Source: Clostridia bacterium (lineage in GTDB: Bacteria > Bacillota > Clostridia > UBA1212 > UBA1255). Taken from it: a stretch of 52,084 nt of DNA. The notes beneath the pieces were generated by a model. That model made no database searches. It saw only the letters and a program-made list of their open reading frames with translations, and had not been told where the DNA came from. Made by a program: the position numbers and the translations under genes. Location: the NCBI GenBank assembly GCA_016287565.1, contig JAEFAM010000008.1, positions 1 to 52,084 on the forward strand. The letters run 5' to 3'. This document shows, one piece after another, positions 11,583 to 47,660 of the stretch; positions within the stretch are counted from its first letter, which is position 1; every line of letters begins with the position of its first letter.

Positions 11583-11800
11583 AGCTAAATTCGTCCTGCG
11601 GACGAGCTAAATTGACCTTCGGTCAGCTAAATTCGCGCTGGCACGCGAGCTAAATTGCCGCTTTTCGCGGCAGCTAAATTCGTCCTTCGGACGAGCTAAA
11701 TTGACCTTCGGTCAGCTAAATTCGCGCTGGCGTGCGAGCTAAATTGCCGCTTACAGCGGCAGCTAAATTCGTCCTGCGGACGAGCTAAATTGACCTTTGA
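11583..11800. repeat. Hairpin array with AGCTAAATT spacers
   Basis: Ten copies of AGCTAAATT separate short perfect or near-perfect inverted repeats. Four stem types recur in fixed order: CGTCC/GGACG, GACC/GGTC, CGCGC/GCGCG-like, GCCGC/GCGGC. The set runs twice in full and starts a third time. Higher-order period is about 89-98 bp. Loops differ between copies (CTGCG versus CTTCG, CTTTTCG versus CTTACAG) while stems stay paired, including one compensated pair (GCACGCG versus GCGTGCG). The array fills the gap between the isomerase start and the rpmB terminator. It is not a CRISPR: the spacers are constant and the repeats are the hairpins. Confidence 0.9.
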
Positions 11801-28222: not shown

Positions 28223-30850
28223 TCAATCGCTGCCGGGGCCCGGCGTGGGAGACGGTTCGGGGAGCGCGGTCGGCGTCGTCAACGGCGTGGCGGCGGGAGT
28301 TGCCGCGGGAGTGGCCTCCGGCGTTGCCCCGGGAGTGGCCTCCGGAGTATCTGAAGGCGTTGCCGCAGGCGTTCCCGTGGGGAATTGCGCGGGAGTGGCT
28401 TCAGGTCCGGGCGTAGGAGTAGATTCGGGCGGCGTTGTGGGCGTAGTTTCCGGCCCCGGCGTAGGAGTCGCTTCCGGCGGCAGCGTAGGCTCCTCCGTGG
28501 GAGGCACGGGCTCCGACAGATCGTATCCCAGCGATCCGAAATACTCGTCCATCTGGGCGTCGGACAATCCGAAATACGCCTTGATATCCCTCAAAACGGT
28601 GATATTCCTTCTGCCGTCCCTTATTATATCCTTCATCTTCTCCAGCCATTCGTACCAGCGCTCCACCGTCATGCCGTACCTGGCCTGGTTCATAGCGATC
28701 TCAGGCTCCATTATAGACACGAACCAGTCTATCTTCGCCATTATGGCAGTTTCGTTCAGCACGGTCCCCATGAGCTGGGCGTAGCGTTTCAGGAACATGT
28801 CCCGGAACAGGGGATTGGTGATCAGCCGCTTCATGAGAGAGCTGTTGGGGCCGTTGACGATGACGTTGTTGATGGAGTCGGTGCGGTCGGTCCAGAAGGC
28901 CCAGTCGAGGTCGAAATAGCACCAGCGCCACTTGCCGTCGGCCTCGTCGGACTGGAAGAAACGGGCGTTGGCCAGGTCGTTGTCACCCATATAGGAGCGG
29001 CAGACGTACCAGTCGATCAGGCTGTAAATGTCCACCTGCCCGGTCACGTAGGCCAGATTGTCTATTTTGGTCATATCGTGGGTGCGGCAATAGTTCAGCA
29101 ATTCCGAATATTTCGCCTTGTCCCCGTCCTCCACCTTGCCGTAGGCCCTCAGCACGTTCACGGACTCTTCCGAAACGCCTCCCAGCCTGCGGGCGAAATG
29201 GTCCCGGTCGTACCGCTCCCGAAGGAAGTATATGCCGTGGTACTGACCGTTCAGGTACAGTATCACCGGGCGGCAGGCCAGCACGTCCAGGTTGGTATAC
29301 CCGTCGATCAGCGTGGTGCACAGCTCGTCCCGGAAGCCGCAATAAATGTAATCTTCGCTGCCTCCCTTAAGAAGGAGCGAATTGAATATATCCACTTCTC
29401 TGTTGTCGAACAGCTTGCAGTGCAGCTTGGAAAGGCCGTAATCCGAGCGGAACCTCAGCTGGAAATTCTGCTTCTCGCCCAGTTTGCTGTCGTTGCCGTG
29501 GAGTTTAAACCCGCAGGGCGCCGAAAACACCTCTTTCCCGTCCTCCATCAGCGTAACGTAGGAAACGTGCTCGTACTCCGGCTCCACGTGGTTGAGGACT
29601 CCCTCCGGGCCCGTGAGATACTCCTGTCGGATGGCAACGTTCACCACCGGCAGCGTGTGGTCTATCCCCACCATATAGAAGAAGGACGTCTCCCGGCTGC
29701 GCTTCATTCCGTCGATGCACACCGCCCGTATGGATACGATGCCGTCAACGTTTATTGGCCCCGTATACTTCTTAGACGAAACGTCAGGTTCCGTGCCGTC
29801 GGTGGTATAATACACGGTCCCCTGCCCGGTCAATTCGACAGTGAATGGGCTGTCGTATGCGCCTGTGGCAACGTCGGCTTTCGGCATCGAGAGCGTGTAC
29901 GTGTAGCCCGGCGCGTTCGACCGTCCCGGAGTGGCTACGGCCATATATACGAAGCCCTCGGGGCCCCGCCCGTAGCTCTCGTTCTTCTTAAGGTCCCCGG
30001 GCACTTCCACCGTGTCGATGATGCCGCCCGGGCCGCTTAAATAGATCTTTTCGCCCGAGGCGCTGATCTTGAAGGGCGCTCCGGTATCCGCGGTCTCTCC
30101 CGTACAGTAGATGACTATGAACTGTCCCGCGTCAAGCTTCATGTCCGGCAGCCTGTATTTCTGCAATTTAGACTTTTTATCCGAAAGATAATATTTCGAA
30201 AGGTCCACGGGGGAGGAAGTATTGTTGTATATCTCCACGAGATCGTAGCAGTTGCCGTCGGGAGCCGGGAACCTGTCGTTGGAGGCCATCACTTCCGTGA
30301 TCACCAGGTCGGGAAGGCCGGGGAATATATTCATTACAGGCGCTCCGGTCGGCGTGGGGGCGACGGTGGGAGTGGGACTTTCCGTGGGAGAAGTCTGGGG
30401 AAGGCCTGTCCCGCGTGGCGCCGTGGGAGTTGCGGGCCGCTTCGTGGCCGTGGGAGCCGGTATTTTAGTGGGCGACGGAGAGGGAGTATGCGTCGGAGAA
30501 GGCGTCCGCGAGGGGGCGGGAGAGGAGGTCTGAGAGGAAAGCGGTGAGGCCGCAGCGGTATCGACCGGAGAATAAGATGCGTCTGTGGGCGCGGGACCGG
30601 TCTCCCCGGTAACTATTGCCGTCGCTAACGCCGTTGACGCCGCCGTCGTTTCGGGGCCGTCAGATACGGGAGCGAAAGTGGGAAGAGACGAGGAAGGCGC
30701 GCCGGTGGGGACGTTGACCACGGGAGCCTCGGTAGGCTCGCTGCCCGGCAAATAATCGCACGCCGAAAAGACCGCGGCTGACAATACCAGCGCGGCGGCG
30801 ACGGACGATATGGCGGTTAGAGACGGTTTCCTGTTTTTAGCGTTTTTCAT
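28223..30850 (-). CDS. CotH-kinase lipoprotein with lamin-tail domain and Pro/Thr-rich stalks
   Basis: 875 aa. Lipoprotein signal with lipobox FSAC near residue 30. Pro/Thr/Ser-rich stretch about 38-175. A lamin-tail domain (LVITEVMASNDRF, DLVEIYNNTSSPVDLSKYYL) spans about 180-300, then a chitobiase-C-like segment (VYYTTDGTEPDVSSKKYTG) about 330-390. A CotH kinase domain covers about 395-760 (KLHGNDSKLGEKQNFQLRF, YHGIYFLRERYDRDHF, WRWCYFDLDWAFW). The C-terminus is a Pro-Glu-Ala-Thr repeat. CotH proteins phosphorylate secreted proteins (known for spore coat CotH); here a lipid-anchored surface form is predicted. Only 67 bp separate it from the AAA-M41 gene upstream of it. Confidence 0.88.
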   Translation of the reverse strand: MKNAKNRKPSLTAISSVAAALVLSAAVFSACDYLPGSEPTEAPVVNVPTGAPSSSLPTFAPVSDGPETTAASTALATAIVTGETGPAPTDASYSPVDTAAASPLSSQTSSPAPSRTPSPTHTPSPSPTKIPAPTATKRPATPTAPRGTGLPQTSPTESPTPTVAPTPTGAPVMNIFPGLPDLVITEVMASNDRFPAPDGNCYDLVEIYNNTSSPVDLSKYYLSDKKSKLQKYRLPDMKLDAGQFIVIYCTGETADTGAPFKISASGEKIYLSGPGGIIDTVEVPGDLKKNESYGRGPEGFVYMAVATPGRSNAPGYTYTLSMPKADVATGAYDSPFTVELTGQGTVYYTTDGTEPDVSSKKYTGPINVDGIVSIRAVCIDGMKRSRETSFFYMVGIDHTLPVVNVAIRQEYLTGPEGVLNHVEPEYEHVSYVTLMEDGKEVFSAPCGFKLHGNDSKLGEKQNFQLRFRSDYGLSKLHCKLFDNREVDIFNSLLLKGGSEDYIYCGFRDELCTTLIDGYTNLDVLACRPVILYLNGQYHGIYFLRERYDRDHFARRLGGVSEESVNVLRAYGKVEDGDKAKYSELLNYCRTHDMTKIDNLAYVTGQVDIYSLIDWYVCRSYMGDNDLANARFFQSDEADGKWRWCYFDLDWAFWTDRTDSINNVIVNGPNSSLMKRLITNPLFRDMFLKRYAQLMGTVLNETAIMAKIDWFVSIMEPEIAMNQARYGMTVERWYEWLEKMKDIIRDGRRNITVLRDIKAYFGLSDAQMDEYFGSLGYDLSEPVPPTEEPTLPPEATPTPGPETTPTTPPESTPTPGPEATPAQFPTGTPAATPSDTPEATPGATPEATPAATPAATPLTTPTALPEPSPTPGPGSD

Positions 30851-34306: not shown

Positions 34307-34522
34307 ATGCTGGGCTGGCTTCAGGAGAATATAGGCACGATAATAGTGCTGGCGGTACTGGCGGCGATCATTGCCGGAGCCGTGATCGTGGTGGTCCGCG
34401 ACAAAAAGCGGGGCAAGGCGATCTGCGGCGGCAGCTGCTGCTCCGGCGGCTGCGGCAATTGCCCCATGCACGGGAAGTGCCATCCGATCTCCGAGGAGAT
34501 CAATTCCTCATCGCAAAGCTAA
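34307..34522 (+). CDS. FeoB-associated Cys-rich membrane protein
   Basis: 71 aa. A single membrane helix (TIIVLAVLAAIIAGAVIVVVV-like, about residues 11-30) is followed by a basic stretch and a cysteine-rich tail CGGSCCSGGCGNCPMHGKC (six Cys, one His). This matches the small FeoB-associated Cys-rich proteins found after feoB in Clostridia, thought to handle iron or hold the transporter complex. RBS AAAGGAGGG. Its TAA stop is formed by the first AGCTAAATT spacer of the following hairpin array. Confidence 0.9.
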   Translation: MLGWLQENIGTIIVLAVLAAIIAGAVIVVVRDKKRGKAICGGSCCSGGCGNCPMHGKCHPISEEINSSSQS

Positions 34523-34740
34523 ATTCGGCCTGACGGCCGAGCTAAATTGAAAACCGCAGGCTTTCAGTGACAATGGAGCCTGCGGTTTTCAGCGAAATTG
34601 ACCCCTGACAGTTTATATGAAATTGTCAGGGGTCAGCTAAATTCGCACTGGTGTGCGAGCGAAATTGCCGCTTTGCGGCAGCTAAATTGAAAGCCGACGG
34701 CTTTCAGCTTAATACATCCTGCGGACGAGCTAAGTCGGGT
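34517..34740. repeat. Hairpin array, AGCTAAATT type, after the feo operon
   Basis: AGCTAAATT (with variants AGCGAAATT, AGCTTAATA) separates inverted repeats: CGGCC/GGCCG, a 14-bp stem at 34549-34590 (GAAAACCGCAGGCT), an 11-bp stem at 34600-34634 (GACCCCTGACA), CGCAC/GTGCG, GCCGC/GCGGC, GAAAGCC/GGCTTTC and a degraded CGTCC/GGACG. Several stems equal those of the array at 11.6 kb. The two long stems could also terminate the feo transcript, though no U tract follows. Confidence 0.87.
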
Positions 34741-35110
34741 TCACTTTCTCGCTCATTTTGAGCCTTCGGGCAGAGCGTCCTTCTTTCAAACGCCAAGAAT
34801 CAAGGGGGTAAGTGGTAAATTCTGGGCGTTTCTTGCTCATTTTTTGTTGTCGGGCGGTGCAGCTTCATTCCAAACGCCAAGAAATCCGAGTTAAGGGGCA
34901 AATTCTGGGTGTTTCTCGCTCGTTTGCGGCTTCAGAGGCAGCTCCGCTTCTTCCAAAACGCCCAGAAAATTGAGACAAACGGCAAAAAATGGGTGTTTCT
35001 CGCTCTTCGCAGTTTCAGAGACAGCGCCGCCTCTCCCAAAACGCCCAAAAAATCGAGACAGACGGCAAAATATGGGCGTTTCTCGCTCGGCTCGCCTTTC
35101 GAGACAGAGC
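34741..35110. repeat. Tandem array of 82-84-nt hairpin-plus-linker units (locus 1)
   Basis: Four hairpins of about 44 nt begin at 34788, 34872, 34956 and 35038 with AAACGCC and close with GGCGTTT or GGTGTTT. Each is followed by CTCGCTC or TTGCTCAT and a linker of about 40 nt rich in GCTTC, CAGAG and CTCC. An extra linker copy precedes the first hairpin. Period is 84, 84 and 82 nt. The region has no convincing coding potential; open frames across it change with repeat phase. Confidence 0.85.
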
Positions 35111-35142
35111 AGGGGTCCTGGTATGAGCAAAGGAAGTGTTTC

Positions 35143-35394
35143 GCTGCCGCATCGCGGCAATTTAGCTGAATCCTGACAGCTCGAATGTATCGGACCGTCA
35201 GGGTTCAACATCACTCGCCGCAGGCGAATCTCACTCGTGCGTCAGCACGAACATCACTCCGCGAAGCGGAATATCACTGCGCTCCAGCGCAATCTCACTC
35301 GCCGCAGGCGAATCTCACTCGTGCGTCAGCACGAATCTCACTCGCCGCAGACGAATATCACTGCGCTCCGGCGCGAATCTCACTCCCGTAACGA
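35143..35394. repeat. Hairpin array, AATTTAGCT then ATATCAC/ATCTCAC spacers
   Basis: It begins with TGCCGCATCGCGGCA plus ATTTAGCT (the complement orientation of the 34.5-kb spacer) and a long imperfect stem at 35170-35206. Eight hairpins follow, separated by AATATCAC, AATCTCAC or AACATCAC. Stem order is CGCCG, CGTGCG, CCGCG, GCGCTC, CGCCG, CGTGCG, CGCCG, GCGCTC. All hairpins start with T and end with A or G. The array stops at the LD-carboxypeptidase stop codon. Confidence 0.87.
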
Positions 35395-36609
35395 CTACCT
35401 CAGCACGTGCTCCACGATCAGTTGACCGGGCCCCGCCTTTACGTTGGCGAAGGCACCTGAAATAAGGGGCATAGAAGGCGCTGTATGGCCTATGTCCGCG
35501 TCAAGCACTATGGGTACGCCCAACCCCTCCAGAGGGGCTAAAACGGCCTCCTGGAGGCCTTCAGGGTCATTTCCCAGGGCCAGCATGAGCGGGCGGCCGA
35601 AAATGAAGCCGGATGCGCCATTGAACCAGCCCGCTTCCCGCAATTGCCACAGCGCCCGGCGGATGCCCATTGTCCCCAGGTCGCAGGCTTCTAGGAACCA
35701 GACCAGCCCGTCGCCTTTGTATCTTTCGTAGAAATCCTTGACCTTGTCGAACCTGGTGCCGCAGAGGACCGACAGGCAGTCGAGGCAGCCGCCGATGAGC
35801 CTGCCCGAGAAGGAGGCGGTCGACGCGAATCTCACGCCTGACGCGCCGGACCCGATAGCAACGCCGTTCAGACAACCGTCACCGATCACGCAATTGCCGT
35901 TCGCGCAACCATCACCGGCTGCGTTGCCCGGGACAGCCACCCGCGTCAGCGAAGGTTCGGTCAGGTTCAGGGGCGCGAATGGATCGTCCTCGGATCTCAG
36001 ACTCTCTTTTTCCCATGCCGGAAAGCCCTCGAAGGTCAGTTTGCGGCCGGTCAGCAGCGCGAATGCGTCGTCGATGGAGGCGTGCCAGTCTTTCATTCCG
36101 AAAGTCGGGGCGTTGGGGCCGTACACCGCAGCGGTATCGCAAAGGACGGGCAATGTAAACGTGAGATTGGTGTTGTCCGAATATCCCATGAACCACCGGG
36201 GGCGGGATGCGGCAATTGCCTCGAAATCCACGTAGGGCAGGTCTTCGCACATCGTCTCGCCGCCGCCGCAGGATATGACCGCGTCAACGCCGCCGCGACC
36301 GTCCGGTCCGCCTGCGCTGAAGTTGACCGCGCCGCCGACACCGCAATTGCCCGGCACGCCCGTGCCGCCTTTTGCGGCATTGTCCGTGAAAAACATATCG
36401 ATCTCCCGGCCGCACTCTTCGGGGGAGTTGCTCTTTCCCACGCCTTTGGCCAGGTAGCAGTTTGGGCCCGTCAACGTCCCGTAGCCCATCGTCCGGAACC
36501 GCTCCAGTGCCGCGGCGAAACAGGTCACGTACGGCTCGGTGGCGCAGCCGTAAGAAGGGGCGATGAAGCCTATGGTGCCTCCGGGCTTTAAGAATTCGGG
36601 ATATCTCAT
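35395..36609 (-). CDS. LD-carboxypeptidase family protein (S66, LdcA/MccF)
   Basis: 404 aa, longer than usual. The start PGGTIGFIAPSYG, the nucleophile region AVISCGGGETM and the GYSDNTNLTF segment mark family S66, serine peptidases that cleave L,D bonds in muropeptides or process microcin C-like compounds. Two Gly/Asn/Cys-rich inserts, about residues 102-120 and 225-262, are unusual; at DNA level they contain small inverted repeats and a GCGAATCTCACGC stretch like the spacer of the adjoining array. GGAGG precedes the ATG at 36609. The start overlaps the bioY stop (ATGA), so the two are coupled. Confidence 0.88.
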   Translation of the reverse strand: MRYPEFLKPGGTIGFIAPSYGCATEPYVTCFAAALERFRTMGYGTLTGPNCYLAKGVGKSNSPEECGREIDMFFTDNAAKGGTGVPGNCGVGGAVNFSAGGPDGRGGVDAVISCGGGETMCEDLPYVDFEAIAASRPRWFMGYSDNTNLTFTLPVLCDTAAVYGPNAPTFGMKDWHASIDDAFALLTGRKLTFEGFPAWEKESLRSEDDPFAPLNLTEPSLTRVAVPGNAAGDGCANGNCVIGDGCLNGVAIGSGASGVRFASTASFSGRLIGGCLDCLSVLCGTRFDKVKDFYERYKGDGLVWFLEACDLGTMGIRRALWQLREAGWFNGASGFIFGRPLMLALGNDPEGLQEAVLAPLEGLGVPIVLDADIGHTAPSMPLISGAFANVKAGPGQLIVEHVLR

Positions 36610-37491: not shown

Positions 37492-37668
37492 TTCGTCCGC
37501 GCTCCTTCCGGTATCGATCTCGGTCAAATTATAGCTTATTCGCCGCGGCCGTTTCAAGCGGTGGCGCGATGGCGGTCAAAGAGTCCGGGCTGTGGCGGCC
37601 CATGCGTTCGCCTGCCGTGGATCCGGGCGGCCGTGCGCTGCCTTGAAGCTTAAAATCGGCGCGAAATA

Positions 37669-37826
37669 AATCACTGCGCGCCAGCGCAATATCACTCCGC
37701 GCAGCGGAATATCACTCGTGCGCCGGCACGAATTTAGCTGCCGCAACGTGGCAATTTCGCTCGGCGCAGCCGAATTTAGCTGAACACTGACAATCTTGCT
37801 TAATAGTCAGTGTTCAATTTAGCTGC
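37669..37826. repeat. Composite hairpin array joining ATATCAC and ATTTAGC spacers
   Basis: Six hairpins in order: TGCGC/GCGCA, TCCGC/GCGGA, TCGTGC/GCACGA, TGCCGC/GTGGCA, TCGGC/GCCGA and a long TGAACACTGAC stem at 37781-37817. Spacers switch from ATATCAC to ATTTAGC (once ATTTCGC). The first three stems match those of the 35.2-kb array. The flanking DNA (37558-37668) shows nothing recognisable. Confidence 0.87.
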
Positions 37827-37844
37827 TCGCCTCGCCCCCAAATA

Positions 37845-45787: not shown

Positions 45788-45944
45788 GAAATGGCAAATG
45801 GCAAATTGAAAATGGCAAATGGCAAATGGCAAATTGAAAATGGCAAATGGCAAATGGCAAATGGCAAATTGAAAATGGCAAATGGCAAATGGCAAATTGA
45901 AAATGGCAAATGGCAAATTGCAAGTTGAAAGCGATAAATTGGAT
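45788..45944 (+). repeat. Left block of AATGGCA heptamer repeats beside the four-helix-bundle gene
   Basis: AATGGCA heptamers occur in runs of two to four, each run closed by AATTGAA. The pattern decays into AATTGCAAGTTGAAAGCG toward the gene. It begins directly after the DUF362 stop codon. The right block (46440-46530) carries the complementary sequence in opposite orientation. Confidence 0.88.
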
Positions 45945-46375: not shown

Positions 46376-46530
46376 AAAAATTGCAAATTGCAAATTGAAA
46401 ATTGAAAGATAAGAATTGCAAATTGAGAATGAGAAAAGGAAATCATCATTTCCCATTTACCATTTCCAATTTGCCATTTCCCATTTGCCACTTGCCATTT
46501 GCCATTTCCCATTTGCAATTTGCCATTTAT
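46376..46530 (-). repeat. Right block of repeats, inverted relative to the left block
   Basis: AATTGCA/AATTGAA units (46376-46426) are followed from 46450 by TGCCATT heptamers and TCCCATT variants, the complement of the left-hand AATGGCA units. It stops 20 bp before the trmL start. Repeated TTGCCA hexamers near TATAAA (46527-46532) could supply a trmL promoter (weak inference). Confidence 0.83.
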
Positions 46531-47189: not shown

Positions 47190-47660
47190 GAATTGAAATT
47201 CGAGGGGAATGAAGGAATTCGGTCAAAATTCTCGAAGCCTATGCTCATTTCTTTCAAAGTGATGGAGCTAAGAAATTTGAATTCGAGGGAAACAAAGGAT
47301 ATCGTTAAAAATCCCTGAAGCTTGTGTTCATTTCAAGCAGATCAAAGGAACTCAAGACATTGAATTTCGAGGGAATTCACAAAAGCATCGATAATCCTTG
47401 CTTTTTTTGCTCGTTCCAATTACTAGTGCGGCTTCTGCTTCAAGAAATGAGCCTGACAGACGGCGCACGCTTCATTTTTTTCGAGGGAAAAACGCAGAAC
47501 CTTTAGAAATCCTCGAAGTTTGAGCATCCCGCAAAAAACAGGCAGCGCACGCTCCGTTAAGTTTCGAGGGAATTGTAAACATCTGTAAAAATCCTTGAAA
47601 TTAAAGCTCATTCGACCTCCGCGAGCAGAACAAAACGCCGCTCCTCAGAGCCAAATGAAA
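47190..47660. repeat. Tandem array of hairpin-plus-linker units (locus 2)
   Basis: Five hairpins begin with TTCGAGGG at 47199, 47282, 47366, 47480 and 47562 and close with CTCGAA, CCTGAA or CCTTGAA about 38 nt later. After each comes GCTCATTTC, GTTCATTTC, GCTCGTTCC or similar and a linker. Period is 83, 84, 114 and 82 nt; the third unit carries about 30 extra nt. Period and GCTCATTT linker match the array at 34.7 kb although the stem sequences differ. No gene is seen between 47055 and 47747. Confidence 0.85.

What the first reader, a model, noticed from the sequence alone, without database searches (positions are those of the whole stretch)
34741..35110. 82-84-nt hairpin-plus-linker unit, locus 1
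Seen: four hairpins closed by AAACGCC and GGCGTTT start at 34788, 34872, 34956 and 35038, each followed by a CTCGCTC/TTGCTCAT linker. The unit length is nearly constant while internal bases vary. It is nested inside arrays of the AGCTAAATT class, with forward spacers on its left and complementary spacers (AATTTAGCT) on its right, so the whole 34.5-35.2 kb block has approximate mirror organisation. This suggests ordered assembly rather than random accretion.
Basis: partly seen in the sequence, partly recalled or inferred. Interest (0 to 1): 0.7.

Follow-up and report, generated by a model that had tools for sequence, protein, structure and literature searches.

The report
Tandem hairpin repeats in mirrored shells
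The window holds one of about twenty arrays of an 83-base hairpin repeat that is scattered between genes of a rumen Clostridia bacterium, often boxed in by two facing arrays of tiny hairpins; it is best explained as a parasitic or passive repeat cassette rather than a new gene, but the strict facing arrangement is new and unexplained.

Summary
Four 83-nt units (34765-35098) belong to a family of about 75 copies in about 20 intergenic arrays of this 2.65-Mb rumen Clostridia genome. Each array reads R-(hairpin-R)n, with a 28-nt linker R that can itself pair. Sister species carry the same layout with unrelated hairpins, the linker motif GCTCATTT and repeat lengths of 72-87 (mostly 82-85), so 83 is a family trait, not a universal constant. 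The 47.2-kb array is another subfamily. In sister species some arrays lie inside elements with GGCTCT inverted ends and 8-bp target duplications, matching the end of an ISL3-family transposase gene of the genus; these ends are absent here. Here the shells are Gut-1 (RF01706) hairpin arrays that face inward (forward left, reverse right) at every two-armed locus; coreless Gut-1 pairs in other Clostridia do the same. Most likely: tandemly amplified, non-autonomous repeat cassettes spread by mobile-element-like shells. A functional RNA is not excluded. Mirror order: real. 'RNA gene': unproven.

The parts
34517..34735 (+). left shell: Gut-1-type hairpin array, spacers AGCTAAATT / AGCGAAATT in forward orientation
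   Evidence: spacers at 34517, 34540, 34591, 34635, 34658, 34680; weak Gut-1 matches 34516-34628 and 34634-34698 on +
34750..34777 (+). linker R copy 1 (CGCTCATTTTGAGCCTTCGGGCAGAGCG)
   Evidence: R-hairpin statistics
34788..34831 (+). hairpin 1, AAACGCC..GGCGTTT
34834..34861 (+). linker R copy 2
34872..34914 (+). hairpin 2, AAACGCC..GGTGTTT
34917..34944 (+). linker R copy 3
34956..34998 (+). hairpin 3, AAACGCC..GGTGTTT
35001..35027 (+). linker R copy 4
35039..35081 (+). hairpin 4, AAACGCC..GGCGTTT
35084..35111 (+). linker R copy 5 (terminal, CGCTCGGCTCGCCTTTCGAGACAGAGCA); the array ends with R
35112..35158 (+). right junction, conserved between arrays (GGTATGAGCGAAGGAAG-like)
   Evidence: flanks of the own arrays
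35159..35390 (-). right shell: Gut-1 array, spacers in reverse orientation (AATTTAGCT, AATATCACT)
   Evidence: Gut-1 matches 35287-35363 (56.3 bits, above gathering) and 35203-35279 (48 bits) on -
47199..47616 (+). second array of the same layout with a different hairpin (TTCGAGGG) and steps 83, 84, 114, 83
11583..11797 (+). solo Gut-1-type array, one polarity, no core
37661..37830 (-). solo Gut-1 array, one polarity, no core
   Evidence: (64.5 bits)

Best explanation
The block is a non-autonomous, non-coding repeat cassette. Shown: a 28-nt linker R and a roughly 55-nt hairpin segment repeat head to tail as R-(hairpin-R)n; copies within an array are more alike than copies of different arrays; the same layout with swapped hairpins is found across the genus; in sister species some arrays sit inside elements with GGCTCT inverted ends, and two elements with such ends have clear 8-bp target duplications (one of the two carries the units). 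Inferred: arrays grow and shrink by unequal exchange between R copies, and spread when they become cargo of a mobile-element shell: ISL3-type MITEs in the sister species, and here a shell made of two inward-facing Gut-1 hairpin arrays that act as the two inverted ends, or as the two strands that close a large stem around the core.
For: About 75 copies at about 20 places, all between genes; within-array p-distance 0.164 against 0.284 between arrays, 0 of 1000 permutations; arrays begin and end with R. GCTCRTTT pairs at short spacing in six of the seven genus genomes, none in the reversed control, one match in the three genomes of other genera. TIR pattern GGCTCTNNTYC..CGT absent here (0) and present 6 to 55 times in each of the six sister genomes. 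TSD ACTTGGAA on a 430-bp element that carries units (L089); perfect TSD CAAGCAGG on a 343-bp element with the same kind of ends but no detected unit motif (L174). The ISL3 transposase gene of G001 (PF01610, 5.7e-63) lies next to the end GGCTCTACTCCC. Gut-1 arms face inward at all eight two-armed loci with a core that were read cleanly and in coreless pairs. 83 is not a multiple of 3, so the array is no protein repeat.
Against: No GGCTCT ends, no other inverted ends and no target duplication were found around the arrays of this genome itself. No ISL3 transposase in this genome. Arrays also occur here without Gut-1 shells. The two arms of one locus are no more alike than arms of different loci, so an inverted duplication did not make them. 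L163, another unit-carrying element, shows no TSD. No empty site was shown.
Confidence: 0.5

Rival explanations
1. The units are structured non-coding RNA domains, and the inward-facing Gut-1 arms pair to close the transcript into one large fold.
For: The whole block 34510-35395 folds far better than shuffles (z -9.7, 20 shuffles) with the innermost Gut-1 hairpins pairing across the core; a coreless Gut-1 pair of G015 gives z -9.4. Stems covary between alignable sister subfamilies: A-U to G-C in 6 of 14, A-U to U-A in 4 and G-C to C-G in 3 of 12. R keeps 85% of its pairs against 37-60% when slid, and one pair is mostly U-A here and C-G in G001. Gut-1 was listed as a certain RNA, probably non-coding (PMC2864571).
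Against: No covariation among own units; single own AACGCC units do not fold significantly; G-U against A-C counts do not single out a strand for the hairpin (14 against 10). Self-complementary DNA can keep its arms matched by conversion without any RNA role. Copy number, scatter and lineage-specific hairpins fit repeats better.
Confidence: 0.2
2. The units or the Gut-1 shells are extragenic palindromes moved by a RAYT-type (Y1) transposase, i.e. a REP/REPIN-like system.
For: Three Y1_Tnp proteins with open frames of 264-443 aa in the genome, with relatives in sister genomes; dispersed hairpins with a short conserved foot and inverted arrangement.
Against: The Y1_Tnp genes are not flanked by Gut-1 clusters or unit arrays in any of the ten loci read; the units are head-to-tail over 83 nt.
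Confidence: 0.12
3. The arrays are transcription terminators or insulators kept at gene ends.
For: All lie between genes; several hairpins of sister subfamilies are followed by T runs (e.g. TTGCTATGTTTTTTCG); one terminator-like site inside unit 1.
Against: Gene orientation is mixed: same/same 8, opposite/same 4, same/opposite 4, opposite/opposite 2, so arrays are not tied to 3' ends. Terminator-like sites are not clearly above shuffles (3 against 1.5).
Confidence: 0.1
4. Assembly artefact or chance periodicity.
For: Several arrays lie at contig ends in these draft genomes.
Against: Different flanking genes at each array, divergence of 16-28% between copies, same layout in independently assembled sister genomes.
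Confidence: 0.02

Closest known systems
Gut-1 RNA (Rfam RF01706; Weinberg et al. 2010, PMC2864571)
   Same: The right-hand flanking shell matches the family above its gathering score; short hairpins with GUGAAAU-like spacers.
   Different: The Rfam model is a one-strand run of three hairpins and the 2010 paper lists it for human gut only; here it is in a rumen-related genome and many other Clostridia, and occurs as two arrays that face each other. The 83-nt core is not Gut-1.
MITEs of the ISL3 insertion-sequence family
   Same: GGCTCT inverted ends, 8-bp target duplication, short non-coding elements that carry units in sister species.
   Different: The ends are missing in this genome; the cargo is a tandem array of swappable hairpins.
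REP / BIME / REPIN repeats
   Same: Dispersed, intergenic, hairpin-forming, high copy number, part of larger mosaics.
   Different: Longer head-to-tail unit; no RAYT gene next to the arrays.
Foldback elements (eukaryotic elements with inverted ends built of small tandem repeats)
   Same: Works like: two inverted ends, each a tandem array of small repeats, around a core.
   Different: Analogy only, from general knowledge; arms of one locus are not inverted copies of each other.

Membership tests
Gut-1 RNA RF01706 (flanking shells) | Covariance-model score above gathering (50 bits) | tested here: met
   35287-35363 on - 56.3 bits, 37663-37740 on - 64.5 bits; the left arm only 26.3 and 24.1 bits, i.e. 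below gathering
Gut-1 RNA RF01706 (83-nt core) | Match of the core units to the model | tested here: not met
   No Rfam match to 34750-35111 even at E 5
ISL3-type MITE (sister-species arrays) | GGCTCT inverted ends shared with an ISL3 element of the genus | tested here: met
   only one end of the ISL3 element is on the contig
ISL3-type MITE (sister-species arrays) | 8-bp target duplication | tested here: inconclusive
   Clear at L089 (ACTTGGAA, one extra base before one end) and at L174 (CAAGCAGG, no unit motif inside); 7 of 8 at L093; none at L163 or L175
ISL3-type MITE (this array) | Inverted ends around the array | tested here: not met
   0 GGCTCT ends in G000; no inverted flanks above shuffles except where the Gut-1 arms are
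REP / RAYT system | RAYT gene flanked by the repeats | tested here: not met
Structured RNA family | Covariation among units of this genome | tested here: not met
Structured RNA family | Covariation between subfamilies | tested here: met
   small alignments whose stems were named by eye
Structured RNA family | Transcription of the array | not testable with these tools
   no RNA data
Integron attC array / CRISPR array | Integrase or cas genes beside the array | not tested

The most novel reading that the evidence does not exclude
A modular hairpin-cassette system: a conserved linker R into which lineage-specific hairpins are exchanged while the repeat length stays near 83, enclosed by two Gut-1 arrays whose inward polarity is enforced because a protein or the transcript reads both as one closed structure. 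Gut-1 would then be one half of a two-sided element found across Clostridia.
Probability: 0.25. Interest if true: 0.7.

Novelty: new variant of a known kind. Interest (0 to 1): 0.5.

Why it matters
Gut-1 has stood as an RNA of unknown function since 2010. The finding that its arrays come as facing pairs, with or without cargo between them, changes what has to be explained: a two-sided element, not a one-strand motif. It also shows how hairpin repeats with swapped stems but a recurring linker can fill intergenic DNA of uncultured rumen Clostridia and mimic RNA families in covariation-based searches.

Tried and rejected
A universal 83-nt ruler (8 helical turns): rejected, since a search that allowed gaps of 60-90 nt gave 72-74, 82-85 and 87 depending on subfamily. 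Protein repeat: 83 is not a multiple of 3. Tie to gene 3' ends as the cause of the mirror: rejected by mixed gene orientation. Inverted duplication of one arm as the cause of the mirror: rejected. REP-RAYT: genes present but not flanked by the arrays. GGCTCT or other inverted ends around own arrays: none. Strand from wobble counts: inconclusive. Relatives in plasmids, phages and IMG/VR: none (the IMG/VR scan used one exact 19-mer). A named-genome scan with a linker pattern found nothing. RNAalifold on the mixed alignment A2 gave no structure, because stems of different length were out of register. Literature on similar arrays: nothing found.

Full report
What is there. The window lies in a 2.65-Mb genome of 143 contigs (G000, contig 49). 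The named relatives found with one conserved protein are Clostridia or Ruminococcus MAGs, three of them with rumen in the record title (yak, water buffalo), 74-79% identical; one has a contig of the same length as G006 contig 66 and is probably that genome. In what is called here the A orientation (+ strand of the window) the array reads R-hp-R-hp-R-hp-R-hp-R: five linkers R of about 28 nt, consensus CGCTCATTTYNGGCTTYGAGACAGCGCC, and four hairpin segments with a basal stem AAACGCC/GGYGTTT.

A genome-wide family. A covariance model of 29 units finds 81 matches at E up to 1 in the genome, about 75 of them convincing units, in about 20 arrays of one to eight copies. Spacing is 83 in 36 of 40 neighbouring full-length pairs. 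Copies within an array differ by 16%, copies of different arrays by 28%. Arrays lie between genes in the tested cases, with mixed gene orientation; genes were called with a simple codon-usage score, so single cases may be wrong.

Subfamilies. The linker motif with other hairpins occurs elsewhere in the same genome (AATACATAA, TTCGAGGG) and in sister species (AACACCGCC, AATGGGACA, GACATACC, TCTAGCAAA, TCTAACAAAA, TTCAACGA). My first search fixed the spacing at 83 and so was biased; the second, with a free gap, showed 72-74, 82-85 and 87. The length near 83 is common but not universal.

Structure. Between alignable sister units the stem covaries: 96.8% and 93.2% of cells paired, with two-sided changes at two and three pairs, against 30-46% paired when slid. 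These alignments are small, from related sequences, and the stems were chosen by eye. R also pairs with itself (85-86% of cells against 37-60% slid) with one two-sided difference between this genome and G001. Pairing may be kept at the DNA level, so this does not prove an RNA role.

The mirror. Spacers of the Gut-1 type around the cores are forward on the left and reverse on the right at every two-armed locus in this genome; the only contrary signs are one R at the outer edge of L101 and one F near a core without shells (L112). The rule does not follow core orientation or gene orientation. It also holds without a core: opposite-strand Gut-1 matches within 600 nt are plus-then-minus in G000 C2 and C71, G001 C14, G013 C65, G015 C60 and G030 C50 and in G103 C153, G116 C18, G153 C56 and G179 C67. 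I saw none in the minus-then-plus order in those lists, which were read by eye and are cut at the best matches. Arms of the same locus are no more alike than arms of different loci, so the rule is about polarity, not copying. In the window the innermost hairpins of both arms can pair across the core (z -9.7), and the coreless pair of G015 forms one long stem.

Mobile shells in sister species. Some arrays of G001, G002 and G006 lie within or next to inverted ends GGCTCTACTCC or GGCTCTTTTCC. These ends occur 6 to 55 times in each sister genome and not once here. One unit-carrying element of G002 has the target duplication ACTTGGAA; one 343-bp element of G006 with the same ends but no unit motif has CAAGCAGG. 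G001 holds an ISL3-family transposase gene that stops close to GGCTCTACTCCC. That ISL3 elements make 8-bp duplications is from general knowledge.

How it works, with status. Tandem growth by exchange between R copies: inferred from R-(hp-R)n and from within-array similarity. Spread as cargo of ISL3-type MITEs in sister species: supported by ends and by one target duplication on a unit-carrying element. Spread in this genome: mechanism not shown; the Gut-1 shells are the best candidate ends. Functional RNA: possible, not shown.

Novelty. The core matches no Rfam family and nothing in plasmid or phage records, and no paper found in the held library describes it. The kind, non-autonomous intergenic repeats, is known; the combination of swappable hairpins, a recurring linker and facing Gut-1 shells is a new variant.

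Noticed in passing
window 45789-45923 and 46377-46528: AAATGGC heptamer array on the left and its complement (CATTTGC/CATTTCC) on the right of a 128-aa gene for a 23S rRNA-intervening sequence protein (PF05635, 6e-30): another mirror arrangement around a core.
   Followed up: partly
G000 C131:127375-127710, C96:15767-16105, C22:13434-13769 (L184-L186): Three Y1 transposase-domain proteins of the RAYT-like kind, without flanking repeats of the families studied here.
   Followed up: partly
many Clostridia genomes: Gut-1, listed as human gut only in 2010, matches in 49 of 291 sampled genomes of the class.
   Followed up: partly
G001 contig 119 (L087, L088): The ISL3 transposase gene lies next to a second transposase-like gene of another type (368-aa open frame, not typed by a family search).
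   Followed up: no
L112 (G000 C131:85776-86024): An array set between copies of a further repeat containing GAACGGGGGACAG, not studied.
   Followed up: no
window 28287-28489: Short tandem repeats of period 12-24 inside a long open frame, probably low-complexity coding sequence.
   Followed up: no
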